From a virus, in IMG/VR virus record IMGVR_UViG_3300021963_000038, positions 62,001 to 126,000 of that record: a stretch of DNA of 64,000 nucleotides; one strand, 5' to 3'. Below the pieces are notes generated by a model. That model did not search any database. It was not told where the DNA came from and was given only the letters and a program-made list of their open reading frames with translations. The position numbers were made by a program, and so were the translations under genes. Positions within the stretch are counted from its first letter, which is position 1; each line of letters begins with the position of its first letter. Of this stretch, positions 21,671-38,508 are shown piece by piece.

Positions 21671-21913
21671 ATGAAGGTCGTAAATTTAAATCGTGAGTTA
21701 CCAAAAGAGAAACGTAAAAAAGATTTATTGGAAATCATCGATTCGTTTCGTCAAAGAATAGTTGATGATGAAGTTGAAGAATTTGTTATTGCTTCTATGG
21801 ATCCAAATGATGGTGAAGTTGTGATTACAGTTTGTTGCCAAGATTATGTGGGTGCAGTAGGCCTATTTGAAATTGGTAAACATATATTATTTCAAGTTAA
21901 TGAAGAACAATGA
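21671..21913 (+). CDS. Hypothetical protein
   Basis: An 80-residue protein with a helical, basic N-terminus (RELPKEKRKKDLLEI) and a beta segment EEFVIASMDPNDGEVVITVC. It abuts gp41 without spacing and overlaps the next gene by four bases (ATGA). SD GGAGTGAGAG lies just inside gene 41. No family is recognised. Confidence 0.65.
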   Translation: MKVVNLNRELPKEKRKKDLLEIIDSFRQRIVDDEVEEFVIASMDPNDGEVVITVCCQDYVGAVGLFEIGKHILFQVNEEQ

Positions 21914-23025
21914 GTTTAAATAGAGACCAAGCACTTCATTGTGCAAAAGCATTTGCAGACTATTTCGATAAGTTTTCCCGTATCGATGAGTATATGCGGG
22001 AGCAAAAACTTAATTCATTGGCTGAAAGACCTTTTGTTTTACCTGGATGTGGACCAGAAGAAGATTTATTTTCTGATTTTTCCATGTCACCAATGGATAT
22101 GGAGTTTGAAATTGTATTGATGGAACAGGAACGATGGGCTTCTTACCTTGATATTATTTCTTCACATAATAATCTTTCAAGTCCAGGTAAATCATTACGC
22201 TTTGGTGTTCTGGAAAAGAAAACAAATAAGTGGGTCGGATTCTGTCGCCTTGGGTCTCCAACGATTATGATGAAGCCTCGTAATGAGATGCTTGGTGAAG
22301 TCTTTACAAACACTCCAGAGGGTGCCAAATCGTTTAATAACACAACGATTATGGGTTTCGTTATTGTACCTGCTCAACCTTTTGGGTTTAATTACCTTGG
22401 TGGCAAGTTACTTGCGGCAATCTGTTGTTCACATGAAGTTAGAAATTTGTTGAATGACAAATACAAAATGAATACTTGTTTGTTTGAAACTACAAGTCTT
22501 TATGGTTCTTCAAAGGCAGCCTCACAATATGATGGTATGAAACCATATTTAAGATTCAAAGGTCTTACAGATTCAGATTTTCTACCAATGATGCACGGCA
22601 AACCATATGATGATATCAGAGATTATGTGGAAAAAATTAATGGTGGTCCTATTGTACCAGAAGATGCTTCAAGTCGTAAGTTGAAGATATCAAATACAAT
22701 TATTGCTATGACAAAGGCTGCATTGAAAACACATAAAGATGAATATGATGCCTTCGTTACTACTATCAATAATGCTAAGAATTTGACAGAACAAAAGAGA
22801 TACTATGCTTCAAACTATGGTTTTAAGAACTATGTTGATGTGGTACTTGGAAGAACCGATAAGTTGATACCAGATGAAAACTATGACAAGTTTCATATGG
22901 AGAAAATTGTAGATTGGTGGAAACAGAAGGCCACCAATCGGTTCGACAATCTAAAGACGGAAGGTCGTCTAAGAACAGAACAAGAAGTCTGGACTAGTGG
23001 AAAAGTGCTTGACATTATTCGTTAA
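21910..23025 (+). CDS. DUF4338-like protein (possible DruA relative)
   Basis: A 371-residue protein. RFGVLEKKTNKWVGFCRLGS followed by NNTTIMGFVIVPAQPFGFNY, LGGKLLAAICCSHEVRN and CLFETTSLYG resembles the DUF4338 layout (GNAT-like core, conserved ExTxLYG segment) known from Druantia DruA. The N-terminal 70 and C-terminal 100 residues are specific. The assignment rests on motif recall and is moderate. It ends the replication block. Confidence 0.5.
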   Translation: MSLNRDQALHCAKAFADYFDKFSRIDEYMREQKLNSLAERPFVLPGCGPEEDLFSDFSMSPMDMEFEIVLMEQERWASYLDIISSHNNLSSPGKSLRFGVLEKKTNKWVGFCRLGSPTIMMKPRNEMLGEVFTNTPEGAKSFNNTTIMGFVIVPAQPFGFNYLGGKLLAAICCSHEVRNLLNDKYKMNTCLFETTSLYGSSKAASQYDGMKPYLRFKGLTDSDFLPMMHGKPYDDIRDYVEKINGGPIVPEDASSRKLKISNTIIAMTKAALKTHKDEYDAFVTTINNAKNLTEQKRYYASNYGFKNYVDVVLGRTDKLIPDENYDKFHMEKIVDWWKQKATNRFDNLKTEGRLRTEQEVWTSGKVLDIIR

Positions 23026-25837: not shown

Positions 25838-26686
25838 ATGAAAGATTTGATTATAGGTGCTTGCACCAACTATGATTGGGACAAATTAAAGTATTGGGTT
25901 AACTCAATAAACAGAAGTGGTTTTACTGGCGACAAGGTTATGGTTGCCTTTAATATAAGCTTTGAAACTGTTGACAGATTAACTAAAGCTGGTTTCCAAG
26001 TTATTGTTCCTGGTAAATCCGATGAGGTGAACAAACAATTCACCTATCAATCTAACTTACCAATCCATGTGGAACGATTCATCCACATTTACAACTATCT
26101 ACAAACACATGATGAATATCGGTATGTTATCACAACCGATGTGAAAGATGTTATCTTCCAACACAACCCATCTGAAGCATTAGACTTAGAACTAGGTGCA
26201 AGACAACTGTACCTATTTGCTTCCGAAAGTATGTACTACAAAGATGAACCATGGGGCAATCAAAATTTGATTGAAACATTTGGTCCTTTCTTCCACAATA
26301 TTTTCAAAGAGAATGAAATTTATAATGTGGGTGTTCTTGCTGGTCGTGGCCATGCTATTCAAGATTTGGCAGCAATGATTTTTGCCATGTCAGTCAATCG
26401 ACCAATACCAATTGTAGACCAATCAACATTTAACTTTATGATTTCACAAGAACCATATTTGTCAACAGCAAGATATTGTAAATCAGAAGATGGTTGGGCT
26501 TGTCAATTGGGTACAACTGTTGACCCAAGTAAGATAGAACAATTCAGACCTTTCTTATTAGAAGCATCACCAAAAATGATTGCAGGCAATGTTACAACAT
26601 CTAGAGGAAAAGACTTTACAATTGTGCATCAGTATGATAGAATACCAGAATGGCGCAAAATTATCGAGGAAAAATATAATGACTAA
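25838..26686 (+). CDS. GT-A type glycosyltransferase-like protein
   Basis: A 282-residue protein opening the sugar cluster. YVITTDVKDVIFQ near residues 97-109 holds a DxxD-type nucleotide-sugar motif, and YNVGVLAGRGHAIQDLA near 165-181 resembles the acceptor side of GT8/DUF-type transferases. DQSTFNFM and VHQYDR follow. It overlaps the dehydratase gene by eight bases. Donor and acceptor are unknown. Confidence 0.65.
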   Translation: MKDLIIGACTNYDWDKLKYWVNSINRSGFTGDKVMVAFNISFETVDRLTKAGFQVIVPGKSDEVNKQFTYQSNLPIHVERFIHIYNYLQTHDEYRYVITTDVKDVIFQHNPSEALDLELGARQLYLFASESMYYKDEPWGNQNLIETFGPFFHNIFKENEIYNVGVLAGRGHAIQDLAAMIFAMSVNRPIPIVDQSTFNFMISQEPYLSTARYCKSEDGWACQLGTTVDPSKIEQFRPFLLEASPKMIAGNVTTSRGKDFTIVHQYDRIPEWRKIIEEKYND

Positions 26687-27707
26687 ACGAGTATTAATCA
26701 CCGGCGGTGCAGGCTTTATTGCACATCATTTAATTGAAACTATTCTGGACACCACAGATTGGACAATTGTATCACTTGACCGACTAGACTTCTCTGGCAA
26801 TTTAAATCGCCTAGAAGATATTATGAAGAAATATTCACCCGAACAAAAGAAACGGGTTGAGATTGTCTTTCACGATTTGCGAGCAGAAGTTAATCCACAA
26901 ACCGCTGGTTTGATTGGTGATTGCCAACTTGTGTTACACCTTGCAGCTGGTTCTCATGTAGACCGTTCAATTGAATTTCCAATGGAATTTGTGCAAGATA
27001 ATGTTATCGGCACAGTCAACCTTTTACAATTTTCAAGAACACTAAAGAACTTGGAGAGGTTTGTATACTTCTCAACTGATGAAGTATTTGGACCTGCACC
27101 TGAAGGTGTTGACTATAAAGAGAGAGACCGATATAATGCTACGAATCCTTATTCTGCCAGCAAGGCAGCGGGTGAAGAAATGTGTGTTGCCTTTGAGAAC
27201 ACTTACAATATGCCAATTTACATTACACACACAATGAATGTGTTTGGTGAACGTCAGCATCCAGAGAAATTTATTCCTAAAGCCATTCGATATGCTCGTG
27301 ATGGTGAAACACTAACTATTCATTCAGACAGAAGTAAAACTAAAGCCGGTTCTCGGCACTATGTTCATGCAAAAGATGTTGCTGATGGTTTGATGTTTAT
27401 TCTCAATTTACCTGAAGATTATGCCAAAGTTCCTGATTTTGGTGGTGCAAAGATTCCTAAATTTAACATTGTTGGACCTGATGAAGTAGATAATTTAGAG
27501 TTGGCTAAACTTATCGCAGAAGCACAAAACAAAGAACTCAAATATGAAATGGTTGATTTCCATTCATCACGACCTGGCCATGATTTGCGTTATGCATTAT
27601 CTGGTGATTACATGGCAGCTTTAGGATGGAAACCAAAGATTTCTTTGCGTGAACGCATTAGAGATATGGTTATCTGGTCATTAGAAAATGATAAGTGGCT
27701 TAAATGA
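26679..27707 (+). CDS. NDP-sugar 4,6-dehydratase-like extended SDR
   Basis: A 342-residue protein from ATG 26679, with SD GAGGA. The NAD-binding start is VLITGGAGFIAHHLI. STDEVFG near residue 132 and YSASKAAGE near 157 match RmlB-type dehydratases, in which T-D-E and YxxxK carry out oxidation at C4 and loss of C6 hydroxyl. RHYVHAKDVADGL binds the nucleotide-sugar. An epimerase is possible, but TDE favours the dehydratase. It likely makes the 4-keto sugar used by the E1-like enzyme at 32.6 kb. Confidence 0.82.
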   Translation: MTKRVLITGGAGFIAHHLIETILDTTDWTIVSLDRLDFSGNLNRLEDIMKKYSPEQKKRVEIVFHDLRAEVNPQTAGLIGDCQLVLHLAAGSHVDRSIEFPMEFVQDNVIGTVNLLQFSRTLKNLERFVYFSTDEVFGPAPEGVDYKERDRYNATNPYSASKAAGEEMCVAFENTYNMPIYITHTMNVFGERQHPEKFIPKAIRYARDGETLTIHSDRSKTKAGSRHYVHAKDVADGLMFILNLPEDYAKVPDFGGAKIPKFNIVGPDEVDNLELAKLIAEAQNKELKYEMVDFHSSRPGHDLRYALSGDYMAALGWKPKISLRERIRDMVIWSLENDKWLK

Positions 27708-28408
27708 AAATAGCATTATGTCTATCAGGACAACCTCGTAGTGTAAAACAAGGCTATGAGTTTGTTAAACGCAACATACTAGACGGTAACGATGTTACCG
27801 TTTTTTGCCATGTTTGGGAAAATCCAGAGGTCATAGATATTGAACTTTATAAACCTGAAGCGTATATGATGGAGAAATCTTTAACTGATGACTTATCAAA
27901 ATACACAAGATTTCCACCACCACAACCAAATTGGAAAGTAAAAGATCCAGTCCGTTCAACATATAATCAATTGTATGCTATCTTAAAGTGCAACGAATTA
28001 AAACTTGTATATGAAGATGAAAACAGTATGAAGTTTGATTGGGTCATTCGTAGTCGTTTTGATTTTGCAATCAATGCTAAAATTCCATTTGAAGAATTAG
28101 ATAACAGTAAACTTCACATACCTAATTGCCGTATGGTACCAAGTCGTGATTTTGGCAATGACCAATTTGCATTTTCTTCATCTGAAAACATGGACAAATA
28201 TTCTGATACATTTAATCGTATCGATGAATTTTATGATTCAGGCACACAAATGATGTGTGAAGATTTGATGAGTGCAAATTGGAAACAGAAAGGTTTGATT
28301 GGTGAAAATCTTGTTTACTGTGATATCAATCACCCGTTTCCTCCAGGTCCATACAATGGAACTTGGCACAGTTTAATTCGTGAGGACTTTGAACAATGGC
28401 TTCGTTAG
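27704..28408 (+). CDS. Glycosyltransferase-like protein
   Basis: A 234-residue protein starting MKIALCLSGQPRSVKQGYEF. WVIRSRFDFAI near residues 111-121 provides an RxRxD motif typical of this phage/bacterial glycan-cluster family. The DQFAFSS segment is also typical. It overlaps its neighbours by 4 and 13 bases. Assignment to glycan transfer is from motif and context; the exact reaction is unknown. Confidence 0.55.
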   Translation: MKIALCLSGQPRSVKQGYEFVKRNILDGNDVTVFCHVWENPEVIDIELYKPEAYMMEKSLTDDLSKYTRFPPPQPNWKVKDPVRSTYNQLYAILKCNELKLVYEDENSMKFDWVIRSRFDFAINAKIPFEELDNSKLHIPNCRMVPSRDFGNDQFAFSSSENMDKYSDTFNRIDEFYDSGTQMMCEDLMSANWKQKGLIGENLVYCDINHPFPPGPYNGTWHSLIREDFEQWLR

Positions 28409-29121
28409 TAATTTGCATGGCTGGTTTGAATACCAGATTCCATGATGTTGGTTTTGATATACCAAAGTATTTGTTACCATGGAAAAATGAAACAATCATC
28501 CATGAGATTCTCAAACAACTAGGTAAATTTGATGAAATCCTATTGTTAGCTAATAAGCGTGATGTGTATTTCATGCCTAACTTGGTGAAAACTATTGAAC
28601 CACTTGGTCTCACTAAAGATAATATTCATTATATTGGTGACACAAGTGGTCAAGCACATACTGCTTATATTGGTGCCTCACTATTAAAGAACAGAAATAC
28701 CCTTCCCCATCCTTTCTTTGTTCATAATGCCGACACACTATTGATTGGCAGAGATTTCAAAGAAATTGAATCAACAATGTCTGATGGTTATGTTGATGTG
28801 TTTGTTGCCAACAATCCAAAATATTCTTATGTCAGGTCAAAAGATGGTCTTGTGACCGAGATTGTTGAGAAGGCTTTTATTTCTCCATTTGCAAGTTCTG
28901 GTCTTTATGGTTTTAATAATCCCAATCTATATCAAAAAATGTATGAATCTCTATCACAGGGATATATGGGAAAAGAAATGTATATTGCAAATGTGTTAGA
29001 CTATATGATAAAGAATAATATGTCGATTGGTCTAAATGAATTGAATAATGAATATGAAACAATCGTTCTTGGTAGTCCACAAGAATACGGCCTTGAATTG
29101 GCAAGAATGAGTTTAAAATGA
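28396..29121 (+). CDS. Sugar-phosphate nucleotidyltransferase
   Basis: A 241-residue protein. The N-terminus ICMAGLNTRFHDVGFDIPKYLLP is a variant of the GxGTRxxPxTxxxPKxLxP nucleotide-binding signature of RmlA/GalU-type enzymes. FFVHNADTLL near residue 110 is the metal-binding D. It should activate a sugar- or cyclitol-1-phosphate with an NTP for the cluster. Which NTP cannot be read from sequence. Confidence 0.78.
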   Translation: MASLVICMAGLNTRFHDVGFDIPKYLLPWKNETIIHEILKQLGKFDEILLLANKRDVYFMPNLVKTIEPLGLTKDNIHYIGDTSGQAHTAYIGASLLKNRNTLPHPFFVHNADTLLIGRDFKEIESTMSDGYVDVFVANNPKYSYVRSKDGLVTEIVEKAFISPFASSGLYGFNNPNLYQKMYESLSQGYMGKEMYIANVLDYMIKNNMSIGLNELNNEYETIVLGSPQEYGLELARMSLK

Positions 29122-30086
29122 AAATAAAAGACTTGAAAGGTGGTTCTTTAAGTACCACAGAGTTACACGAAATTGATGGTGTTCATTATGTCAAAAAGAA
29201 AATCAATCTTGTCAAAGAAAGAGAATATGGATTTGTTCGTTGGTATTCTCAATTAAAGAAGATACAAAGATACTCTGTTGATTTTCCAAGTTTGTTTCCA
29301 AAAATTATTGATGTTTCATATGAAACAGACTATGCAGTTATGACTTTACAACACATGGAAGGTTTTAGAGATATCAAAACTATTCTATCCGAAGATAAAT
29401 TAACTGAGCAACAGATTATAAAAATAGTAGATGCTATTTGGAAATCATTTGCTTTACTACATTCTAAAACTTATCCACCAGTTATTGGTGCGCCTAAGTT
29501 ATATTATAAAGAAGAAGTGAGGCAGAAACTAAATGATGCTTTGATAAATGATGAATTTCTACAATTTTTCGGTCATGCTACAGGTGGCGTATTTGAATAC
29601 AATGGTGAAATGACTCATGGTATATTTTCTTATCTTTATGAATTAGAAAATATATTCTTTGATTTGAAACTTTCTTCTGAAGAAAACATACATGGTAATC
29701 CAACATTGGAAAATATGTTGTATTCATTTGAGGAAGATAGAGTTGTTTTTATTGACCTCTATGAAGAAAGTATGATGGACACAAAGTTTCTAGATTATGC
29801 ACAGGTGTTACAGTGTTCACGCAGTCATTATGGTTATATAAATGACCGTGATGTTGTTGTTATGGGTTCAAGTGTATCTCATAATTTAGAAATACCAAAA
29901 AACTTTGAGAAATTCAATTTCTATTTTGAATTGAAGATTCCAAACAATTGGATTAAGTTGGTAAATATATTAGAAGCCACACAATTCATTCGTATGTTGC
30001 CATTCAAATGTCGTGCTGGTGAGATTAAAAAGGCAAAGTTCTTCTATGTTCATGCCTGTAACTTATTAGGTAAGGTTTTAAATTAA
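29118..30086 (+). CDS. APH-like small-molecule kinase
   Basis: A 322-residue protein with the aminoglycoside-phosphotransferase fold pattern: VHYVKKKINL (Lys), then VMTLQHMEGFRD hinge, HGNPTLENMLY (catalytic loop, HGxxxxxN, with Asn-Pro in place of the usual Asp) and VVFIDLYEE (metal-binding ID). The catalytic loop lacks the standard D of HGD, so activity needs testing. It likely phosphorylates a sugar or cyclitol for the adjacent nucleotidyltransferase. Confidence 0.68.
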   Translation: MKIKDLKGGSLSTTELHEIDGVHYVKKKINLVKEREYGFVRWYSQLKKIQRYSVDFPSLFPKIIDVSYETDYAVMTLQHMEGFRDIKTILSEDKLTEQQIIKIVDAIWKSFALLHSKTYPPVIGAPKLYYKEEVRQKLNDALINDEFLQFFGHATGGVFEYNGEMTHGIFSYLYELENIFFDLKLSSEENIHGNPTLENMLYSFEEDRVVFIDLYEESMMDTKFLDYAQVLQCSRSHYGYINDRDVVVMGSSVSHNLEIPKNFEKFNFYFELKIPNNWIKLVNILEATQFIRMLPFKCRAGEIKKAKFFYVHACNLLGKVLN

Positions 30087-31219
30087 TGGAAAATGTATTA
30101 GTTAATTTTGACAATTTCAAAAGAACTTGGTCTGTTAAGGCAGAGTTACCTGTTTCTTTTACTGTCAAATATTCAAGTGATATTTTCAATTCATCTAACT
30201 TGGATTTGTTGTCATATAATGATTCTTATCGTAGGTTGGTTGTTATCGATAAAACAGTTTATGAAATTTACAAAGATGATTTGCATAGTTTTTTTGATAA
30301 ACATAAAGTTGAGTTGAAATTATTTGTAATTGATGCAACAGAAGAAAACAAGGATTGGAAACATACAGATGAAGTTTTAAGATTCTTTGAAGATGTTGGT
30401 GTTCTTCGTAGAGAACCAATCATTGCTATTGGTGGTGGAGTTTTACTAGACCTTGTTGGTTTCTGTTGCAGTATCTATCGCCGTGGTATTCCTTACATTA
30501 AGATACCAACAACATTATTGGCAATCGTAGATGCTTCAGTTGGTGTTAAAGTTGCCGCAAATCATTTTGATAGGCGTAATCGTATTGGTGCATACTATCC
30601 ACCAATCGCAACCTTTCTCGACAAGAAGTTTATCAAGACACAAAACGAAAGAGATATCGTTAATGGTATTGCTGAGATATTCAAACTTGCTGTTATCAAG
30701 AGTGAAGAATTGTTTGTCTTACTTGAAGAAAACTATGAACAATTAATTAATGAGAAGTTTCAATTTGGTGCGGTACCTGTTCGTGTAATCAACCTTGCAA
30801 TCACAGGTATGATTGATGAATTGGCACCAAATCTATGGGAAAAGAAATTAGACCGATGTGTTGACTTTGGTCATTCATTTGGTCCTTTGATAGAGATGAA
30901 TAACTTACCAAACCTATATCACGGTGAGGCTGTTGTGTTAGATTGTTTGTTCAGTTCTTGTATTGCAGAAGTTCGTGGGTATATCACAAGAGAACAGTTA
31001 TCGAGAATCTTTATTTGTGCTAAAAAATTAAAACTACCAACATGGCACCAAGATTTTTCTAAGGTTCGTTTACTTGAGTCTGCCTTAGAAGATACAAAGA
31101 AACACAGAAATGGTAATCAATATCTTCCTGTGCCAATTGGTATTGGACAATATACAATGTTGAATAATGTTACTGTCGATGAATTGAGAGTGGCAGCTGA
31201 TTTATTTGAGGAAATATGA
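30086..31219 (+). CDS. Sugar phosphate cyclase (2-epi-5-epi-valiolone synthase-like)
   Basis: A 377-residue member of the 3-dehydroquinate synthase superfamily. AIGGGVLLDLVGFCCSIYRR (NAD site), IPTTLLAIVDASVGVKVAAN, RNRIGAYYPP, CVDFGHSFGPLIEM and YHGEAVVLD give the zinc and phosphate ligands. The forms YRRGIPY, NRIGAYYPP and DFGHSFGP are closer to EEVS-type cyclases of C7-cyclitol pathways than to AroB, where NMIGAFYQP and LGHTFGHAIE are usual. EEVS converts sedoheptulose 7-phosphate to valiolone. This is inference from motifs; AroB-like activity is not excluded. Confidence 0.75.
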   Translation: MENVLVNFDNFKRTWSVKAELPVSFTVKYSSDIFNSSNLDLLSYNDSYRRLVVIDKTVYEIYKDDLHSFFDKHKVELKLFVIDATEENKDWKHTDEVLRFFEDVGVLRREPIIAIGGGVLLDLVGFCCSIYRRGIPYIKIPTTLLAIVDASVGVKVAANHFDRRNRIGAYYPPIATFLDKKFIKTQNERDIVNGIAEIFKLAVIKSEELFVLLEENYEQLINEKFQFGAVPVRVINLAITGMIDELAPNLWEKKLDRCVDFGHSFGPLIEMNNLPNLYHGEAVVLDCLFSSCIAEVRGYITREQLSRIFICAKKLKLPTWHQDFSKVRLLESALEDTKKHRNGNQYLPVPIGIGQYTMLNNVTVDELRVAADLFEEI

Positions 31220-31893
31220 AAACAATTTTAATTACTGGCACAACAAGTGGTCTTGGTGCTACGATTGCTCACCACTATCTCGAACAAGGTTGGAATGTAA
31301 TTGGTTTAGCTCGTAGTGATTCTATATTTTCATATTCTAACTATAAACATTATAAGACAGACATTAGTAAAATCTATACAAGTTTAAGTGATACCTTTGA
31401 CCAAATCGGAGATACTAAGATTGATATCTTGGTTAACAATGCCGCTATTTTTAAAATGAAATCTTTTTCAGAAACAAGAATTGATGATATGTGCGATATG
31501 ATTGATATCAATCTTAAAGGTCCAATGTATGTAACTAAGTTTGCATTAAAAAATATGGAAAAAGGCAGTCGTATATTTTTCATCAATTCAGTTGCTGGTT
31601 TAGAACAATTAGAAAACCAATCTGTATATTGTGCCACAAAACATGGTCTTACAGGATTTGCAGGAGTTCTTGGTAAAGAATTGCAATCAAAAGGAATCAA
31701 AGTTACCAGCATACATCCAGGTGGTATTGATACACCACTATGGAACAAAGATGTACCTTACCCATGTGGTGATGTAAGTAAGGCAATCTCACCAATAGAG
31801 GTTGTAAAATTAATTGATTTCGTGTATAATAGTAAATTCAATATTGATTATAAAACAATTAAAATGTTCCCTGATACAGAATGGCATCAATGA
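31216..31893 (+). CDS. Short-chain dehydrogenase/reductase
   Basis: A 225-residue classical SDR: ILITGTTSGLGATIAHHY (TGxxxGxG), ILVNNAAIF (NNAA), INSVAGL with catalytic Ser, and YCATKHGLTGF (YxxxK). HPGGIDTPLW closes the fold. It probably oxidises or reduces the cyclase or sugar product. It starts in an ATGA overlap with the cyclase stop. Confidence 0.88.
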   Translation: MKTILITGTTSGLGATIAHHYLEQGWNVIGLARSDSIFSYSNYKHYKTDISKIYTSLSDTFDQIGDTKIDILVNNAAIFKMKSFSETRIDDMCDMIDINLKGPMYVTKFALKNMEKGSRIFFINSVAGLEQLENQSVYCATKHGLTGFAGVLGKELQSKGIKVTSIHPGGIDTPLWNKDVPYPCGDVSKAISPIEVVKLIDFVYNSKFNIDYKTIKMFPDTEWHQ

Positions 31894-32612
31894 GTATTAT
31901 ACCTGACAACCACCTTTTCATAGTTACTTCTGCCCTTAATACGGGCATTGGTGTTATTGATTTTGAAACTCGTGTCAATCAAACACTTGAAACCTTGAAA
32001 GTTCTCCGTGAAAGAGTGCCTCAAGCAATTATTACTTTGACTGATGCATCATCAAGACCAGTAGATAAATCTATCATGGATGAAATGTCGAAGTACAGTA
32101 ACATAAATTTAATATTTCATAATGATAGTGACCTGTGTACACTTGCAAATGCTGGATTAAAATCACAAGCAGAAATTATACTGTTACATAAAACATTATC
32201 AATGTTCAAAATGAATGCTGATTTGTTAAAAGTCATGTCAAGTGTAAAGAGAGTTTACAAATTATCAGGTAGAACTAATTTGATTGATGGTTTTGACATT
32301 GAAAGATATAATGATAAAAACTTGTATGGTAAATATGTTTTTAAGAAACGTATGCCATCATGGATGCCTATCGATAAACAAGTTGGCACGGGTGCAGACC
32401 ACTTATTGATTACAAGAATGTATTCTATCTGTATTTCTTTATTAGATAACTACTACAATACATTACCTTTGATTTATCAATCTGTGAATGAAAACAATAT
32501 TGATACGGAACATGGACATTACAAGCACATAGATAAACAATACTTGGTTGAATTTGATAATTTGTATTGCCAAGGAACTATGGCATCAACAGGACTTACG
32601 GAAACATATTGA
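31881..32612 (+). CDS. Unknown protein of the sugar cluster
   Basis: A 243-residue protein. ATG 31890 overlaps the SDR stop and may be the true start. The pattern FIVTSALNTGIG at the start and VKRVYKLSGRTNL near residue 125 resembles glycan-cluster proteins of unknown fold, with LLITRMYSI and HGHYKHID later. A transferase is likely from context, not proven. Confidence 0.55.
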   Translation: MASMSIIPDNHLFIVTSALNTGIGVIDFETRVNQTLETLKVLRERVPQAIITLTDASSRPVDKSIMDEMSKYSNINLIFHNDSDLCTLANAGLKSQAEIILLHKTLSMFKMNADLLKVMSSVKRVYKLSGRTNLIDGFDIERYNDKNLYGKYVFKKRMPSWMPIDKQVGTGADHLLITRMYSICISLLDNYYNTLPLIYQSVNENNIDTEHGHYKHIDKQYLVEFDNLYCQGTMASTGLTETY

Positions 32613-33895
32613 TGATTGATGATAAACTAATTGAAGAACTTGCTCGTCAAGCAAAACCAAAATATCAACAAGACTACACTAACTTTAATCCAGAAAAAGA
32701 TTATGTGATGTATTCTGGTCAGTTGTGGGACCATGACGAGTTTGCAGCTGGTCTTAAATCTTTTCTAACAGGTAAATGGTTGCCTGCTGGTGAAAGAGTT
32801 GAACAATTTCAAATGAAGTTTTCAAAGAAATATAATGTGAAGGCTTCGCACATGGTAAACTCTGGTTCATCAGCCAATTTGGTTATGATGGCCGCAGTTA
32901 AGAATCATCTACAATGGCAAGATGGTGATGAAGTTATCGTTTCACCTGTAGGATTCCCAACTACAATCGCACCATTGATGCAGAACAACCTCAAACCAGT
33001 ATTCATTGATATTGAGTTTGATACATTAAACTTTGATGTGAATCTAATCGAAGAAAAGATTACACCAAAAACAAAAGCAATCATTGTTTCTCCTGTGTTG
33101 GCAAACCCACCAGATATGGATGCGATTGTTGATATCTGCAAGAAACATAATCTTGTGTTGATTGGTGACAATTGTGATTCACTAGGCACCAAATGGGATG
33201 GTAAATTAATTACCGATTTATATTACTGTTGGTCAACATCATTCTATCCCGCACACCATATGTCAACAGGTGAAGGTGGCATGATTTCATCCAACGACAT
33301 TAAACTGATTGATGTTGCTAGGTCTATATCATGGTGGGGTCGTGATTGTTATTGTGTCGGTTCAAACAATATGTTACCATGTGGTACTTGTGGCAATCGA
33401 TTCGATAAATGGTTACCTGGTTATGATGGCATCATCGACCACAAATACATCTTTGCATATGCAGGTTATAATTTGAAACCACTTGATATGCAAGGTGCTA
33501 TTGGTATTGCACAACTAGGAAAAGTTGATTACATAGACCAGAAAAGAAAAGAACACAAAGAACGATTATCTAAACTGCTGACTAAGTATTTGAATGTTCG
33601 TATTGCAGATAAGTTAGAGAAGTCAGACCCATCATGGTTTGGTGTTCCAATTATTTGTGAATCACAAGAAGTGAAAGAAAAGTTAGTTGCCTTCTTTGAA
33701 GCAAATCGTATTCAAACAAGAAACTATTTTGCTGGTAATATATTGTTACATCCAGGTTTTAAACATCTAGATGATGCAAGTAAATATCCATTGGCAAACA
33801 AAGCACTATCTCATGTATTTTTGTTAGGTTGTCCTCCTTTTTGGAACGATGCAGTATTTGATTACATTGAAAAGGTATTAAAATCATGTCAGTAA
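32612..33895 (+). CDS. E1-like NDP-4-keto-6-deoxyhexose 3-dehydrase (RfbH/DdhC-like)
   Basis: A 427-residue DegT-fold protein; ATG 32612 overlaps the preceding TGA. STSFYPAHHMSTGEGG has His where aminotransferases have the PLP lysine, as in E1 dehydrase. DCYCVGSNNMLPCGTCGNRF supplies clustered cysteines like those holding the [2Fe-2S] centre of E1, and the following GYDGIIDHKYIFAYAGYNLK also matches RfbH. E1 removes the C3 hydroxyl of CDP-4-keto-6-deoxyglucose, needing a reductase (E3); none is encoded nearby, so a host reductase or ferredoxin may serve. Confidence 0.85.
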   Translation: MIDDKLIEELARQAKPKYQQDYTNFNPEKDYVMYSGQLWDHDEFAAGLKSFLTGKWLPAGERVEQFQMKFSKKYNVKASHMVNSGSSANLVMMAAVKNHLQWQDGDEVIVSPVGFPTTIAPLMQNNLKPVFIDIEFDTLNFDVNLIEEKITPKTKAIIVSPVLANPPDMDAIVDICKKHNLVLIGDNCDSLGTKWDGKLITDLYYCWSTSFYPAHHMSTGEGGMISSNDIKLIDVARSISWWGRDCYCVGSNNMLPCGTCGNRFDKWLPGYDGIIDHKYIFAYAGYNLKPLDMQGAIGIAQLGKVDYIDQKRKEHKERLSKLLTKYLNVRIADKLEKSDPSWFGVPIICESQEVKEKLVAFFEANRIQTRNYFAGNILLHPGFKHLDDASKYPLANKALSHVFLLGCPPFWNDAVFDYIEKVLKSCQ

Positions 33896-34077
33896 TTATT
33901 GATAAACCACACTACAAATTAACCGTAGATAAAAATCCAGTTTTTAACCCACCAGAGTTGAAAGAATTAGTTTTTAAAAAAACTTCATACAATGAAGATG
34001 GTTCTATTCTTACTTACAGTAAATTTGAATTGTATCTCACTGAAGATGAAATTAAAATGATTAAAGCTGCACTATGA
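33886..34077 (+). CDS. Small hypothetical protein of the sugar cluster
   Basis: A 63-residue protein overlapping the 3-dehydrase by ten bases and the next gene by four. It begins MSVIIDKPHYKLTVDKNPVF and ends YLTEDEIKMIKAAL. A beta-hairpin plus helix is likely. No family is recognised. Confidence 0.55.
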   Translation: MSVIIDKPHYKLTVDKNPVFNPPELKELVFKKTSYNEDGSILTYSKFELYLTEDEIKMIKAAL

Positions 34078-34889
34078 AAGTACAAGTATTTGGTGGTAAT
34101 GGATTTGTTGGTTCTGCTTATGTGAAAAGAAATCCAGATTGTATTGTTAAATCAAGAAATGACTACACCGTAGGTGCAGAAGATGTTCTTTATATGATTT
34201 CGACAGTTACAAATTACCATGTCAAAACAGACCCATACATTGATATCAAAACTAATTTGATGACGTTGATGATGGTGTTGAGTCAATGTAAAGATATGAA
34301 TTTGACATTTAACTTTGTCAGTTCATGGTTTGTTTATGGTGAAACAGAAATGCCTGCAACTGAAGAATCAAATTGTTACCCAAATGGTTTCTATTCGATT
34401 ACAAAAAGATGTGCAGAACAATTATTGATTTCTTATTGTGAAACTTTTGGTATCAAGTATCGTATTCTCAGATTGGCCAATGTAGCGGGTCATGGTGATA
34501 AGAAAGCCTCACCACAAAAGAACGCACTTCAACATATGATTAATGAATTGAAGTTAGGTCGTGATGTAAATGTGTATGATGGTGGTAATTTGTATCGTGA
34601 TTATATTCATGTCAATGATGTTGCCCGAGCAATCGAATTGATATTGGAAAAAGGTGAAGTAAACACAATCTATAATGTGGGCAATGGTATGCCTCTTTTG
34701 TTTAAAGATATGATTGAGTATGCCAAAGAATTAGTCGGTGGGCAAGGCAAATTAAATCCAATCGAAATTCCACAGTTCCACAAGACAGTTCAAGTCCGTA
34801 GTATGTGGATGAAGAACGACAAATTGGCAGCGCTTGGATACACTCTAATGTACGATATGAAGGCTATCATTCAAGACATGGTGAAATGA
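34074..34889 (+). CDS. NAD-dependent sugar epimerase/reductase-like extended SDR
   Basis: A 271-residue protein: VQVFGGNGFVGSAYV (GxxGxxG), NFVSSWFVYGE, YSITKRCAEQL (YxxxK), and LYRDYIHVNDVARAI. These are extended-SDR landmarks shared by epimerases, 4-ketoreductases and dehydratases. With the 3-dehydrase upstream, a final C4 or C5 reduction/epimerisation is the most economical guess. Confidence 0.8.
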   Translation: MKVQVFGGNGFVGSAYVKRNPDCIVKSRNDYTVGAEDVLYMISTVTNYHVKTDPYIDIKTNLMTLMMVLSQCKDMNLTFNFVSSWFVYGETEMPATEESNCYPNGFYSITKRCAEQLLISYCETFGIKYRILRLANVAGHGDKKASPQKNALQHMINELKLGRDVNVYDGGNLYRDYIHVNDVARAIELILEKGEVNTIYNVGNGMPLLFKDMIEYAKELVGGQGKLNPIEIPQFHKTVQVRSMWMKNDKLAALGYTLMYDMKAIIQDMVK

Positions 34890-35536
34890 ATTTAATTCTA
34901 TATCAGGCATATTACCAGCAAGAACAACTTGTTCACCTAGATTCGACTTTTACTCCTTACGACAATACGGCAAACGATGCACCACATTTGCGTGAGTTGC
35001 CGATGTGGAGAAAGTTATTAGAACAACACAAAGACTCCGATTTACATTGGGGTCTTTTGTCATGGAGATGGTTACAAAAAACTGGTGTACCACCAATAAA
35101 ATTCAAAGAATGGATTCTCGCAAATGAAGGTTACGATGTTTATCATCTAGACCCTTTTGCATATCTTGCCAATGATTTTCCAAATTTATGGGTGCAAGGT
35201 GATATGTGGCATCCAGGTATGCTAGAGTTTGCAAGAATATTATTTCCAAAAATTGGCATCAATACACCAGTTGAACAGTTTAAATATCTACCTGAAGATT
35301 TTGGAACTTGCAATTATTTTGTAGGCAACTCTAAATTTTGGACAAATTACCTTGGTTTTATTGACCTATGTCTAAAACTATGTGATGAAGATGAACGGTT
35401 GAGCAACTACATATACAAAGATGGTCGAGAATATAATGGACATTTTATTCCATACTTTTCATTTGTTATTGAAAGGTTGTTCTCTATTCACAATATTTTG
35501 AATCGACAAATAACTGTTAAAAAATACCATGATTAA
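34886..35536 (+). CDS. Unknown protein of the sugar cluster
   Basis: A 216-residue protein from ATG 34886 (ATGA overlap); the longer frame from 34805 lies inside the SDR gene. It is rich in aromatic residues (LHWGLLSWRW, LWVQGDMWHPG, NYFVGNSKFWTNY). This looks like a glycan-cluster transferase of unassigned family. Assignment is by context only. Confidence 0.55.
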   Translation: MNLILYQAYYQQEQLVHLDSTFTPYDNTANDAPHLRELPMWRKLLEQHKDSDLHWGLLSWRWLQKTGVPPIKFKEWILANEGYDVYHLDPFAYLANDFPNLWVQGDMWHPGMLEFARILFPKIGINTPVEQFKYLPEDFGTCNYFVGNSKFWTNYLGFIDLCLKLCDEDERLSNYIYKDGREYNGHFIPYFSFVIERLFSIHNILNRQITVKKYHD

Positions 35537-36311
35537 TCAATTTGACTATGAAAAGTTAATTAAACAATATCAAGAAGGCAAACCATTTCGCCATGTGGTG
35601 ATTGACAACTTCTTTGATGCTGAAACTGCATTGAAACTATCTGCTGAATTTCCAGACTTCAATGACCCTAAAATTTGGTCTGTATATAAGAACCCTATTG
35701 AGAATAAGAAACTGACTCCTAATTGGGACTTGTTTCCTAAAAATACATACCGAGCATTTACTTTGATGAATACTCCAGAGTTTGTTGATAAGATTCGCAT
35801 AATTACAGGTATCAATAATCTAGAAGCCGATTATGGTTTACATGGTGGTGGTTGGCACATGACTGCTCGAGGTGGTAAATTGAATATGCACAAAGATTAT
35901 TCAATTCATCCTAAACTAGGCAAAGAAAGACGCATCAACATTATCATCTACATGACACCTGCATGGGAAGAAGAATGGGGTGGTGGTTTAGAATTCTGGT
36001 CACATGATGCAGAGAAGAATCTACCAAAAGAATGTGTGACCAAATTGTATAATAAATTTAATCGTGCGGTTCTATTTGACACCGCAGATAACTCATGGCA
36101 TGGACTACCAACAGAGCTCCAATGTCCAGAAGGTGTATATCGTAAGTCATTGAATATTTACTATGTTTCTGAAGCCAGACCGGAATCAGAAAAACACGAT
36201 AAAGCTTTGTTTGCACCATATGGTGACCAAGTAAATGACCCTCAGATACTTGAATTGATTAAAAAACGGTCTAGTTCCAAGACATCCGGTGAAGTTTACA
36301 GAACACCGTAA
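35529..36311 (+). CDS. Prolyl-4-hydroxylase-like 2OG-Fe(II) oxygenase
   Basis: A 260-residue dioxygenase. LNMHKDYSIHP near residues 117-127 has the HxD iron ligands, NSWHGLP near 194-200 the distal His, and RKSLNIYYVS the 2OG-binding Arg. The INIIIYMTPAWEEEWGGGLEFW segment is typical of phage and bacterial homologues in glycan clusters. It may hydroxylate a sugar or peptide. It ends the sugar cluster. Confidence 0.85.
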   Translation: MINQFDYEKLIKQYQEGKPFRHVVIDNFFDAETALKLSAEFPDFNDPKIWSVYKNPIENKKLTPNWDLFPKNTYRAFTLMNTPEFVDKIRIITGINNLEADYGLHGGGWHMTARGGKLNMHKDYSIHPKLGKERRINIIIYMTPAWEEEWGGGLEFWSHDAEKNLPKECVTKLYNKFNRAVLFDTADNSWHGLPTELQCPEGVYRKSLNIYYVSEARPESEKHDKALFAPYGDQVNDPQILELIKKRSSSKTSGEVYRTP

Positions 36312-36360: not shown

Positions 36361-38508
36361 ATGAAATTTAGAGAATTTTTAGAAGAACAAAAAGAAAACC
36401 ATGCCGTTATGGCTTTTGGAAGGATGAACCCTCCAACAACAGGTCATGGTAAACTTGTAGACAAAGTTAAAGAGGTCGCCAAAAAAGTAGGCGGTTCTCA
36501 TCATGTCATATTATCACATTCGCAAGACAAGGAAAAGAATCCTCTGTCTGCCGAAGATAAGATAAAACACGCAAAACGATTCTTTCCAGATACTAATCTT
36601 TCAGTATCGAACAAAGAACATCCAACATTCCTACAACACGCAGCAAAACTTCACAAACAAGGTGTAACTCATTTACACATGGTTGCTGGTTCTGACCGTG
36701 TTCCTGAATACAAAAAGAAACTCGCACAATATAATGGCACACACGAAGGTGCATTATATAATTTTAAAAAGATTACGGTTCATAGTGCAGGCGAACGGGA
36801 TCCTGATGCTGAAGGCACAACTGGTATGTCAGCCTCTAAAATGAGAGGCCATGCTGCAAAAGGTAATTTTAAAGAATTTAAAAAAGGCATTCCCTCTCAC
36901 GTTGAACCACATCATGCAAAAGAATTGTACCATGATGTTCGTAAACATATGGGTATTAAAGAAGAAACAGAACTTGATATTCTGTTTGAAGAAATTTTAG
37001 AAGAAGGTGTCCACGATAAAGCCATTTTCAAAGCAGTATTTTTAGCAGGTGGTCCAGGTTCTGGTAAAGACTATGTTCTTGATAACACACTTGCAGGTCA
37101 TGGCCTAACTGAAATCAATTCAGATAAGGCACTTGAGTTTCTCATGGACAAAGAGAACCTCGACAAGAAAATGCCTGATAACGAAGAAGCACAAAGAGAT
37201 GCTGTTCGTTCAAGAGCTAAAAGTATGACTGAATTGCGCCAACGATTGGCACTACAAGGTCGCAACGGCCTTATCATCAATGGTACTGGTGATGACTATG
37301 AAAAAATCAAACGCATCAAAGAAAAATTAGAAGCCATTGGTTATGAAACTTCTATGATTACAGTTAATACTCGTGATGAAGTTTCTCAACAAAGAAATGT
37401 TGAGCGTGGCCAACGTGGTGGTCGTACCGTGCCGGAAAACATCCGTAAAGAAAAATGGGACTCAGTTCAGAAATCAAGACCACAACTTGCAGAGTTATTT
37501 AAAGATAACTATGTTGAATTTGATAATTCTGAAGATTTGCGTTCTGCACATCCAGATGTAGTTAAAACCAAAAAAGATGAATTGTTATCTTTGTATAAAA
37601 ACTTTCAAAAGTTTGTTTCTAAACCACCTAAGAATGATAAAGCAAAAGAATGGGTTGGTGGGCAATTAGGCAAGAAAGATACTTTACCGGTTCCTAAAAA
37701 AGGACAAGAAGCTGTACATCACCCAGCAGATAGAGATTCTAAAGCTACTCTACAAGCAAGACAATTAGGTTTAACCTATTTTGGTTTTGGTCGTTGGGGT
37801 AAAGGTGGTGTTGTTTCACATCATGTTGTGCATGGTCAATTAGTTGCCAACGAAACAGAAAAAAGAGGACAACAAACCGTGCAAGTACCACAAACAAAAA
37901 CTATTGAGAAGATTAAAAAAGTTAACGAAGAATTCGAAAACTTTTTAAATGAATCGGTTACAGTATCGGTAATAGAAGAATCTAACAAAGTTGATTTACA
38001 CCATAGTAAATTAATGAAAGATGGTAAAGGTAAAGTTAGAACTTTTATGATACGCAGAAATGCAGCCAAAGAGGCTCATACACACAATGGTGTCGTACAT
38101 AAAATCGATAAGGGATATGTTGTTAAAATAAAGGAGAATGAAGATGTTAAAAGCATTAGTCAATTATTTAAAGTTGAAACCGAAGGTAGAAGAATCACCG
38201 AAAGTGGAAGTACAACCAGTTCCAGAACCAGAGGTGAAGAAACCGGCAGTAAAAAAATCACCCTCGAAGAAATCCGTGCCCGCCAAAAAGAAAAAATAAA
38301 TGAAATTGATGGTGGTACAGAACCAGGTATGGCATTGAATGGTTACGCAAAAGAAACTATCAGCAGAAAACGTAAAGATGGTAAAGTAACTGTTACAGAA
38401 TTAACTGGTGATGAAACTACTATGAGTATTGGTGATAAAAAAGAAGATGACCTTAAAAAAGTAGGCATCAATCTTTCATCATTTAAAGCAAAGAAATTTG
38501 TAGGGTAA
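36361..38508 (+). CDS. Nucleotidyltransferase-kinase fusion with capsid-targeting-like N-terminus
   Basis: A 715-residue protein. MKFREFLEEQ resembles the T4 capsid-targeting sequence. Residues about 14-160 form an HxGH-family nucleotidyltransferase (FGRMNPPTTGHGKL; MSASKMRG as ISSTxxR motif), like NMN adenylyltransferases. Residues about 222-400 form a zeta-toxin-like P-loop kinase (LAGGPGSGKDYVLDNTL). The region 465-500 carries ATLQARQLGLTYFGFGRWG, seen in many T4-like proteins. The C-terminus is low-complexity and overlaps a second gene at 38144. Two enzyme domains in a likely packaged protein suggest NAD or nucleotide modification on infection; this is inference. Confidence 0.75.
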   Translation: MKFREFLEEQKENHAVMAFGRMNPPTTGHGKLVDKVKEVAKKVGGSHHVILSHSQDKEKNPLSAEDKIKHAKRFFPDTNLSVSNKEHPTFLQHAAKLHKQGVTHLHMVAGSDRVPEYKKKLAQYNGTHEGALYNFKKITVHSAGERDPDAEGTTGMSASKMRGHAAKGNFKEFKKGIPSHVEPHHAKELYHDVRKHMGIKEETELDILFEEILEEGVHDKAIFKAVFLAGGPGSGKDYVLDNTLAGHGLTEINSDKALEFLMDKENLDKKMPDNEEAQRDAVRSRAKSMTELRQRLALQGRNGLIINGTGDDYEKIKRIKEKLEAIGYETSMITVNTRDEVSQQRNVERGQRGGRTVPENIRKEKWDSVQKSRPQLAELFKDNYVEFDNSEDLRSAHPDVVKTKKDELLSLYKNFQKFVSKPPKNDKAKEWVGGQLGKKDTLPVPKKGQEAVHHPADRDSKATLQARQLGLTYFGFGRWGKGGVVSHHVVHGQLVANETEKRGQQTVQVPQTKTIEKIKKVNEEFENFLNESVTVSVIEESNKVDLHHSKLMKDGKGKVRTFMIRRNAAKEAHTHNGVVHKIDKGYVVKIKENEDVKSISQLFKVETEGRRITESGSTTSSRTRGEETGSKKITLEEIRARQKEKINEIDGGTEPGMALNGYAKETISRKRKDGKVTVTELTGDETTMSIGDKKEDDLKKVGINLSSFKAKKFVG
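38144..38299 (+). CDS. Overprinted small Lys/Pro-rich protein inside the fusion gene
   Basis: A 51-residue frame (+1 relative to the host gene) from ATG 38144 to TAA 38299, preceded by the strong SD AAGGAG at 38130-38135. It begins MLKALVNYLKLKPKVEES and ends in a lysine/alanine/proline-rich tail (KKSPSKKSVPAKKKK), like small DNA-binding proteins. The host frame here is low-complexity, so both may be real. A sequencing frameshift is an alternative explanation. Confidence 0.45.
   Translation: MLKALVNYLKLKPKVEESPKVEVQPVPEPEVKKPAVKKSPSKKSVPAKKKK

What the first reader, a model, noticed from the sequence alone, without database searches (positions are those of the whole stretch)
30086..31219. 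Valiolone-synthase-like cyclase rather than AroB
The motifs YRRGIPY, RNRIGAYYPP and DFGHSFGP diverge from AroB forms and resemble EEVS-type cyclases. No other shikimate gene is present, so a simple aromatic amino-acid helper role is unlikely.
Basis: partly seen in the sequence, partly recalled or inferred. Interest (0 to 1): 0.7.

Follow-up and report, generated by a model that had tools for sequence, protein, structure and literature searches.

The report
Phage cyclitol-making enzyme and gene cassette
An uncultivated T4-like aquatic phage carries a sugar cyclase of the kind that starts acarbose and validamycin synthesis, always next to a reductase, a kinase-fold protein and a nucleotidyltransferase, so it probably makes an activated ring-shaped sugar mimic that no known phage has been shown to make.

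Summary
The observation and its main reading hold. Window 30086-31219(+) is an intact 377-aa sugar phosphate cyclase. [quoted passage not shown] It has EEVS residues at every diagnostic active-site column compared. The AroB residues Lys250, Arg264, Asn268 and His275 are all replaced, and a tree plus AU test reject AroB kinship (p = 0.0001).

Beyond the finding: the cyclase sits in a translationally coupled four-gene cassette, nucleotidyltransferase-kinase fold-cyclase-SDR. All four genes occur in 63 of 63 viral loci with enough flank. Related cassettes occur in Myxococcota, Polynucleobacter, Balneolaceae, Fibrobacterota, Prochlorococcus and a Woesearchaeote, three of them in polysaccharide loci; twice an aldo/keto reductase stands in for the SDR.

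Best explanation: sedoheptulose 7-phosphate is cyclised, reduced, phosphorylated and nucleotidylated to an NDP-C7-cyclitol, used by neighbouring glycosyltransferases on host or virion glycans. Only homology and linkage are shown. Product, step order and acceptor are inferred, and the kinase-fold protein has an invariant HGN where catalytic HGD is expected.

No named phage among 50,697 records carries it; their cyclase hits (at most 32% identity) are AroB-like. New variant of a known kind.

The parts
30086..31219 (+). EEVS-type sugar phosphate cyclase, 377 aa (the finding)
   Evidence: ValA 4p53 285 bits, DDGS 5tpr 217, AroB at most 132; TIGR01357 aroB 209 bits, below its cut-off of 305; active-site columns; tree and AU test
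28396..29121 (+). Small sugar/cyclitol-1-phosphate nucleotidyltransferase (NT), 241 aa
   Evidence: TIGR03992/RmlA-like; family profile hits Vibrio NDP-sugar pyrophosphorylase 4evw, E 5e-35; invariant N-terminal G10/R14/P23-K24 motif
29118..30086 (+). APH/choline-kinase-fold protein (KIN), 322 aa, with an invariant HGN in place of HGD
   Evidence: AlphaFold model pLDDT 93.8; VIA-align Z 19.1 to APH(4)-Ia, 18.7 to choline/ethanolamine kinase 3dxq; Lys27, Asn199 and Asp213 invariant; weak Pfam APH/Choline_kinase hits in cellular orthologues
31216..31893 (+). Short-chain dehydrogenase/reductase (SDR), 225 aa, putative ketone reductase
   Evidence: PF00106 E 2.6e-39; replaced by an aldo/keto reductase in Prochlorococcus and one Myxococcales
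31881..32612 (+). GT-A-fold glycosyltransferase-like protein, 243 aa, conserved next to the cassette in the T4-like viruses
   Evidence: AlphaFold pLDDT 89.5; VIA-align Z 13.5 to GnT-I 1foa, 12.8 to the PBCV-1 capsid-glycosylating transferase 2p6w
27704..28408 (+). Conserved protein of unknown fold, N-terminal CLSGQPR motif, upstream partner in the T4-like viruses
   Evidence: phrog_13607; found in 67 viral loci; no PDB sequence match
25838..26686 (+). Glycosyltransferase-like gene upstream
   Evidence: phrog_1579 glycosyltransferase, E 9e-7
26679..27707 (+). NDP-hexose 4,6-dehydratase-like gene, variably present
   Evidence: TIGR01181 238 bits, below its cut-off; missing from many relatives
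32612..33895 (+). RfbH-like DegT aminotransferase/dehydrase, variably present
   Evidence: NF011936 363 bits (cut-off 423), PF01041; missing from many relatives
34074..34889 (+). NAD-dependent epimerase-like gene, variably present
   Evidence: PF01370 E 2e-32; variable

Best explanation
The gene encodes an EEVS-type cyclase that turns the pentose-phosphate intermediate sedoheptulose 7-phosphate into 2-epi-5-epi-valiolone or a close stereoisomer. Its three partners then reduce the ring ketone (SDR), phosphorylate a hydroxyl (APH/choline-kinase-fold KIN) and attach a nucleotide (NT), giving an NDP-activated C7-cyclitol, a carbocyclic mimic of a nucleotide sugar. Neighbouring glycosyltransferases use it to decorate host-surface or virion glycans. 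Shown here: subfamily of the cyclase, active-site residues, strict linkage, and the folds or families of the partners. Inferred: substrate, product, order of steps, activity of the kinase-fold protein, and acceptor.
For: Cyclase: ValA is the best solved relative at 285 bits and 43% identity; all 30 phage sequences carry ValA-like Leu/Asp/His at the three columns where DDGS has Glu/Ala/Thr, and have Met, a non-Arg residue, Asp and Pro where AroB has Lys, Arg, Asn and His; tree and AU test exclude AroB. Cassette: 63 of 63 viral loci with enough flank hold all four genes, mostly with -4 or -1 base overlaps. Related cassettes in other lineages: KIN-CYC-SDR-NT in Myxococcales, Polynucleobacter, Fibrobacteria, Balneolaceae and Woesearchaeota; NT-KIN-CYC followed by an aldo/keto reductase in Prochlorococcus and a Myxococcales, which points to a keto reduction. 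Host bacteria keep a separate AroB above the model cut-off in 9 of 10 genomes. Cellular cassettes lie beside Wzz, GT9, ManC and Gmd (Polynucleobacter), CapD-like and UDP-GlcNAc 2-epimerase genes (Balneolaceae) and a Wzx-like flippase (Woesearchaeote). The same logic (cyclase, kinase, reductase, nucleotidyltransferase to GDP-valienol) is established for acarbose (PMC9200736).
Against: No biochemistry. KIN has Asn at the position of the catalytic Asp in every member aligned (HGN), so its kinase activity is uncertain. NT and KIN belong to different families from the acarbose/validamycin nucleotidyltransferase and ROK kinases, and no epimerase or dehydratase accompanies the core, so the product cannot be GDP-valienol by the known route. 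The cyclase clade does not contain a characterised enzyme. In the L163-L165 virus lineage the NT-like protein is divergent (about 96 bits) and a cupin and a RuBisCO-like protein are inserted. The acceptor is unknown.
Confidence: 0.62

Rival explanations
1. It is AroB (3-dehydroquinate synthase) with diverged motifs, helping aromatic amino-acid synthesis.
For: Pfam DHQ_synthase domains and an aroB model hit of 209 bits.
Against: The hit is far below the aroB cut-off of 305; DAHP-binding Lys250/Arg264 and Asn268/His275 are all replaced; tree support 100/100 and AU p 0.0001; three other shikimate families absent; bacterial carriers of the cassette have their own AroB.
Confidence: 0.02
2. It is a desmethyl-4-deoxygadusol synthase (DDGS) or EboD-type cyclase, feeding a sunscreen or an Ebo product.
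For: DDGS is the second-best solved relative (217 bits); the same tree region uses sedoheptulose 7-phosphate.
Against: DDGS columns Glu/Ala/Thr and EboD columns Tyr/Glu/Lys are not met; both groups form separate 100/99 clades; the conserved partners are KIN, NT and SDR, with no O-methyltransferase or ATP-grasp gene found among the adjacent genes examined.
Confidence: 0.04
3. The cyclase makes a different carbocycle (another stereoisomer, or from another sugar phosphate), still activated by NT and KIN.
For: The phage/cassette clade is sister to the ValA group and contains no characterised enzyme; some second-shell columns vary.
Against: All compared catalytic and fingerprint residues equal ValA.
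Confidence: 0.2
4. The end product is a small diffusible cyclitol (an inhibitor or antimetabolite acting in the infected cell) and not a glycan building block.
For: Known EEVS products are often inhibitors such as acarbose and validamycin (PMC9200736, PMC8599487).
Against: Strict linkage to a nucleotidyltransferase, a neighbouring GT-A-fold protein, and polysaccharide loci in cells.
Confidence: 0.12
5. The activated cyclitol modifies phage DNA.
For: T4-like phages glycosylate hydroxymethylated bases (general knowledge).
Against: No thymidylate synthase/hydroxymethylase family match in the parent record or in most T4-like relatives; bacteria and an archaeon carry the cassette in polysaccharide loci.
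Confidence: 0.05

Closest known systems
[quoted passage not shown] ValA (PDB 4P53) and AcbC
   Same: Same active-site residues at all compared diagnostic columns, 43% identity, and no AroB carboxylate-binding residues.
   Different: Phage and cassette sequences form a sister clade to the characterised group; product untested; virus-encoded.
Acarbose and validamycin C7-cyclitol nucleotide pathways (AcbC/M/O/L/N/U/R; GDP-valienol)
   Same: Cyclase, reductase, kinase and nucleotidyltransferase logic leading to an NDP-cyclitol (PMC9200736).
   Different: Here only four core genes. The kinase-like protein is APH/choline-kinase fold and not ROK, the nucleotidyltransferase is of a short separate family, there is no epimerase, dehydratase or phosphatase in the core, and the cellular context is surface polysaccharide instead of a secondary metabolite cluster.
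DDGS (mycosporine-like amino acid pathway) and EboD (ebo operon)
   Same: Same superfamily and same half of the tree, predicted sedoheptulose 7-phosphate users.
   Different: Different residues at the fingerprint columns and different gene partners.
LPS-type sugar clusters of T4-like aquatic phages
   Same: Nucleotidyltransferase, epimerase/dehydratase, aminotransferase and glycosyltransferase genes in a T4-like backbone.
   Different: None of 50,697 phage records has this cyclase (only AroB-like hits of at most 32% identity) or this kinase-fold protein.

Membership tests
[quoted passage not shown]
   E197, H263 and H279 plus K155, N165 and K200 invariant in all 30 phage rows
[quoted passage not shown] residue names recalled from Kean 2014, pattern re-derived here) | tested here: met
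   L246, D260 and H340 in 30/30 phage rows; DDGS rows have E/A/T
[quoted passage not shown]
   The phage/cassette clade (99/94) is sister to the branch holding ValA, DDGS and EboD (90/85)
[quoted passage not shown]
   Needs an enzyme assay
AroB (3-dehydroquinate synthase) | DAHP carboxylate- and substrate-binding residues Lys250, Arg264, Asn268, His275 (A. nidulans numbering) | tested here: not met
   Met, Asp, Asp, Pro; AroB rows 12/12 conserved
AroB (3-dehydroquinate synthase) | TIGR01357 score above the curated cut-off of 305 bits | tested here: not met
   209 bits; true AroB of carrier genomes 324-408 bits
AroB (3-dehydroquinate synthase) | Groups with AroB in a tree | tested here: not met
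   p-AU 0.0001
DDGS | Glu/Ala/Thr at the three fingerprint columns | tested here: not met
   Leu/Asp/His
EboD | EboD-like columns (Tyr/Glu/Lys, His132) and clade | tested here: not met
Acarbose/validamycin-type NDP-cyclitol pathway | ROK-type cyclitol 7-kinase, 2-epimerase and glucose-1-phosphate-adenylyltransferase-like nucleotidyltransferase | tested here: not met
   Core holds an APH/choline-kinase-fold protein and a short nucleotidyltransferase of another family; no 2-epimerase in the conserved core

The most novel reading that the evidence does not exclude
Aquatic phages encode a compact four-enzyme route, shared with scattered bacteria and an archaeon, from sedoheptulose 7-phosphate to a nucleotide-activated carbocyclic sugar. 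They use it to put glycosidase-resistant pseudo-sugars into surface or virion glycans: a new class of sugar nucleotide and a new viral metabolic function.
Probability: 0.4. Interest if true: 0.82.

Novelty: new variant of a known kind. Interest (0 to 1): 0.62.

Why it matters
EEVS chemistry is known from antibiotic-type secondary metabolism and from gadusol synthesis in vertebrates. A conserved viral cassette would place it in phage biology and in ordinary surface polysaccharides, and would predict a nucleotide-activated carbasugar as a glycan donor. It is directly testable with four small proteins. AMG surveys can miss it: one large ocean catalogue removed virus contigs carrying glycosyltransferase, nucleotidyltransferase, carbohydrate kinase or nucleotide-sugar epimerase genes as possible LPS islands (PMC11360552), and routine domain annotation calls the cyclase 3-dehydroquinate synthase.

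Tried and rejected
AroB, DDGS and EboD membership rejected. Typical cyanophage identity: the helicase is 61-64% identical to Synechococcus phages, but psbA/psbD (PF00124) is absent from the parent record and 11 related records and transaldolase is absent from the parent record, so the host stays unknown. DNA hypermodification: no thymidylate synthase/hydroxymethylase match in the parent record. Defence function: no PADLOC match for the seven core and flanking proteins scanned. PDB sequence search with the KIN profile gave only weak kinase hits, pseudokinases first; the CLSGQPR protein gave none. Literature searches for phage plus valiolone, phage plus dehydroquinate synthase among AMGs, C7-cyclitol plus polysaccharide, and sedoheptulose 7-phosphate plus phage plus cyclase gave nothing relevant. 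The 14 named-phage matches to the cyclase are at most 32% identical; those annotated are called 3-dehydroquinate synthase.

Full report
What was checked. The ORF at 30086-31219(+) is real and complete: 377 codons, ATG to TGA, all three quoted motifs present, opposite strand closed by stops. The window is part of a 135.9-kb IMG/VR virus record with T4-like replication genes, UvsX and a gp41-type helicase; the helicase is 61-64% identical to Synechococcus myophages.

Not AroB. Pfam and NCBIfam recognise the superfamily, but the aroB equivalog score is 209 against a cut-off of 305. The best solved relative is the EEVS ValA (285 bits), then the DDGS of PDB 5TPR (217), then AroB proteins (at most 132). 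In a 98-sequence alignment, every phage row (30/30) matches ValA at the metal ligands, at Lys155/Asn165/Lys200 and at the three columns that separate EEVS (Leu, Asp, His) from DDGS (Glu, Ala, Thr). Where all 12 AroB rows have Lys, Arg, Asn and His (A. nidulans Lys250, Arg264, Asn268, His275), the window protein has Met, Asp, Asp and Pro, and Met, Asp and Pro at the first, third and fourth of these are fixed in all phage rows. The residue numbers are from my knowledge of the DHQS and ValA structures; the group patterns are computed here. That 14 active-site positions fingerprint the sedoheptulose 7-phosphate cyclases, two of them separating EEVS from DDGS, is stated in PMC4426668. That 5TPR is the DDGS is also from my knowledge; the PDB file calls it 3-dehydroquinate synthase.

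Tree. An IQ-TREE phylogeny puts EEVS, DDGS, EboD-like and phage sequences on one side of a 100/100 branch away from AroB. Forcing phage and AroB together costs 63.9 log units, p-AU 0.0001. Within the EEVS side, phage sequences form one clade (91/92). Prochlorococcus sequences are sister to it, then those of other cellular cassette carriers. This clade (99/94) is sister to the branch with ValA, DDGS and EboD, so the protein is EEVS-like by residues but not nested among characterised EEVS enzymes. Several AroB rows and some cellular rows have long branches, so fine branching should not be over-read.

The cassette. The gene overlaps its neighbours: NT 28396-29121, KIN 29118-30086, cyclase 30086-31219, SDR 31216-31893. 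In viral contigs with enough flank, 63 of 63 have all four genes, and the adjacent genes usually overlap by 4 or 1 bases. Other sugar genes (4,6-dehydratase, DegT, epimerase) come and go. The cassette also occurs in viral contigs without the T4-like neighbours (L016, L017, L026, L029, L039; L163-L165), so it moves as a unit. In cells, KIN-cyclase-SDR-NT occurs in Myxococcales, Polynucleobacter, Fibrobacteria, Balneolaceae and a Woesearchaeote, and NT-KIN-cyclase in Prochlorococcus and another Myxococcales. There the gene after the cyclase encodes an aldo/keto reductase instead of the SDR: two unrelated reductase families at the same place point to a keto-reduction step. Actinobacterial EEVS loci lack this KIN. 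Nine of ten genomes with an EEVS-like cyclase, most of them cassette carriers, have a separate AroB over the cut-off. Cellular cassettes sit among ManC, Wzz, GT9 and Gmd (Polynucleobacter), CapD-like and UDP-GlcNAc 2-epimerase genes (Balneolaceae) and a Wzx-like flippase (Woesearchaeote).

Partners. The KIN model (pLDDT 93.8) matches aminoglycoside phosphotransferases and choline/ethanolamine kinase (Z 19.1 and 18.7). Its nucleotide-site Lys27, Asn199 and Asp213 are invariant, but the catalytic HGD is HGN in every member aligned. That is a real caveat: it may be a kinase with an unusual base, or not a kinase. NT matches a structural-genomics NDP-sugar pyrophosphorylase (4evw, E 5e-35) and RmlA/GlmU-type enzymes. 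The gene after the SDR encodes a GT-A-fold protein, best Z 13.5; the capsid-glycosylating transferase of PBCV-1 is among the matches at 12.8.

Mechanism proposed. Sedoheptulose 7-phosphate from the host is cyclised, the ring ketone reduced, a hydroxyl phosphorylated and a nucleotide attached, giving an NDP-C7-cyclitol for a glycosyltransferase. The acarbose pathway proves that such cyclitol nucleotides exist (GDP-valienol; PMC9200736), but with other kinase and nucleotidyltransferase families and extra epimerase and phosphatase steps. Cyclase identity: about 0.93 not AroB and about 0.75 valiolone-type product. NDP-cyclitol: about 0.65. Use on surface or virion glycans: about 0.5. These are my estimates.

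Novelty. None of 50,697 phage records has this cyclase beyond AroB-like hits of at most 32% identity, and none has the kinase-fold protein. No paper found describes a phage EEVS or cyclitol cassette; the library is open-access only, so absence is weak evidence. The enzyme class is known; the viral carriage, the compact cassette and its partner families appear new.

Noticed in passing
L164:7763-9037(+), also L163 and L165: A RuBisCO-like protein (PF00016, E 2.5e-43), with a cupin-like gene, lies inside the cassette between NT and KIN in a second virus lineage. KPK and the KxDE metal-ligand motif are kept; the loop-6 lysine is not evident. In L163 and L165 an ORF of matching size and place was seen but not searched.
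   Followed up: partly
window 29118-30086; alignment A2: The kinase-fold family has an invariant HGN in place of the catalytic HGD, in phages, bacteria and an archaeon, while the other nucleotide-site residues are kept.
   Followed up: partly
L060:2861-4156(-): The Woesearchaeote contig that carries the cassette also has a RuBisCO large chain about 5 kb upstream.
   Followed up: no
window 21910-23025: Gene next to the helicase has a Druantia DruA domain match (PF14236, E 1e-9) in a phage genome.
   Followed up: no
window 36361-38508: 715-aa fusion of a cytidylyltransferase-like domain with a Zeta-toxin/AAA kinase-like domain.
   Followed up: no
window 35529-36311: 2OG-Fe(II) oxygenase (PF13640) at the end of the sugar gene run.
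   Followed up: no
L058:11119-13362(+): Aldo/keto reductase fused to a methyltransferase directly after the cyclase in a Myxococcales MAG, suggesting a methylated cyclitol variant.
   Followed up: no
G000 and 11 related virus records: No photosystem reaction-centre gene (PF00124) although the helicase is closest to cyanophages, so the host may not be a cyanobacterium.
   Followed up: partly
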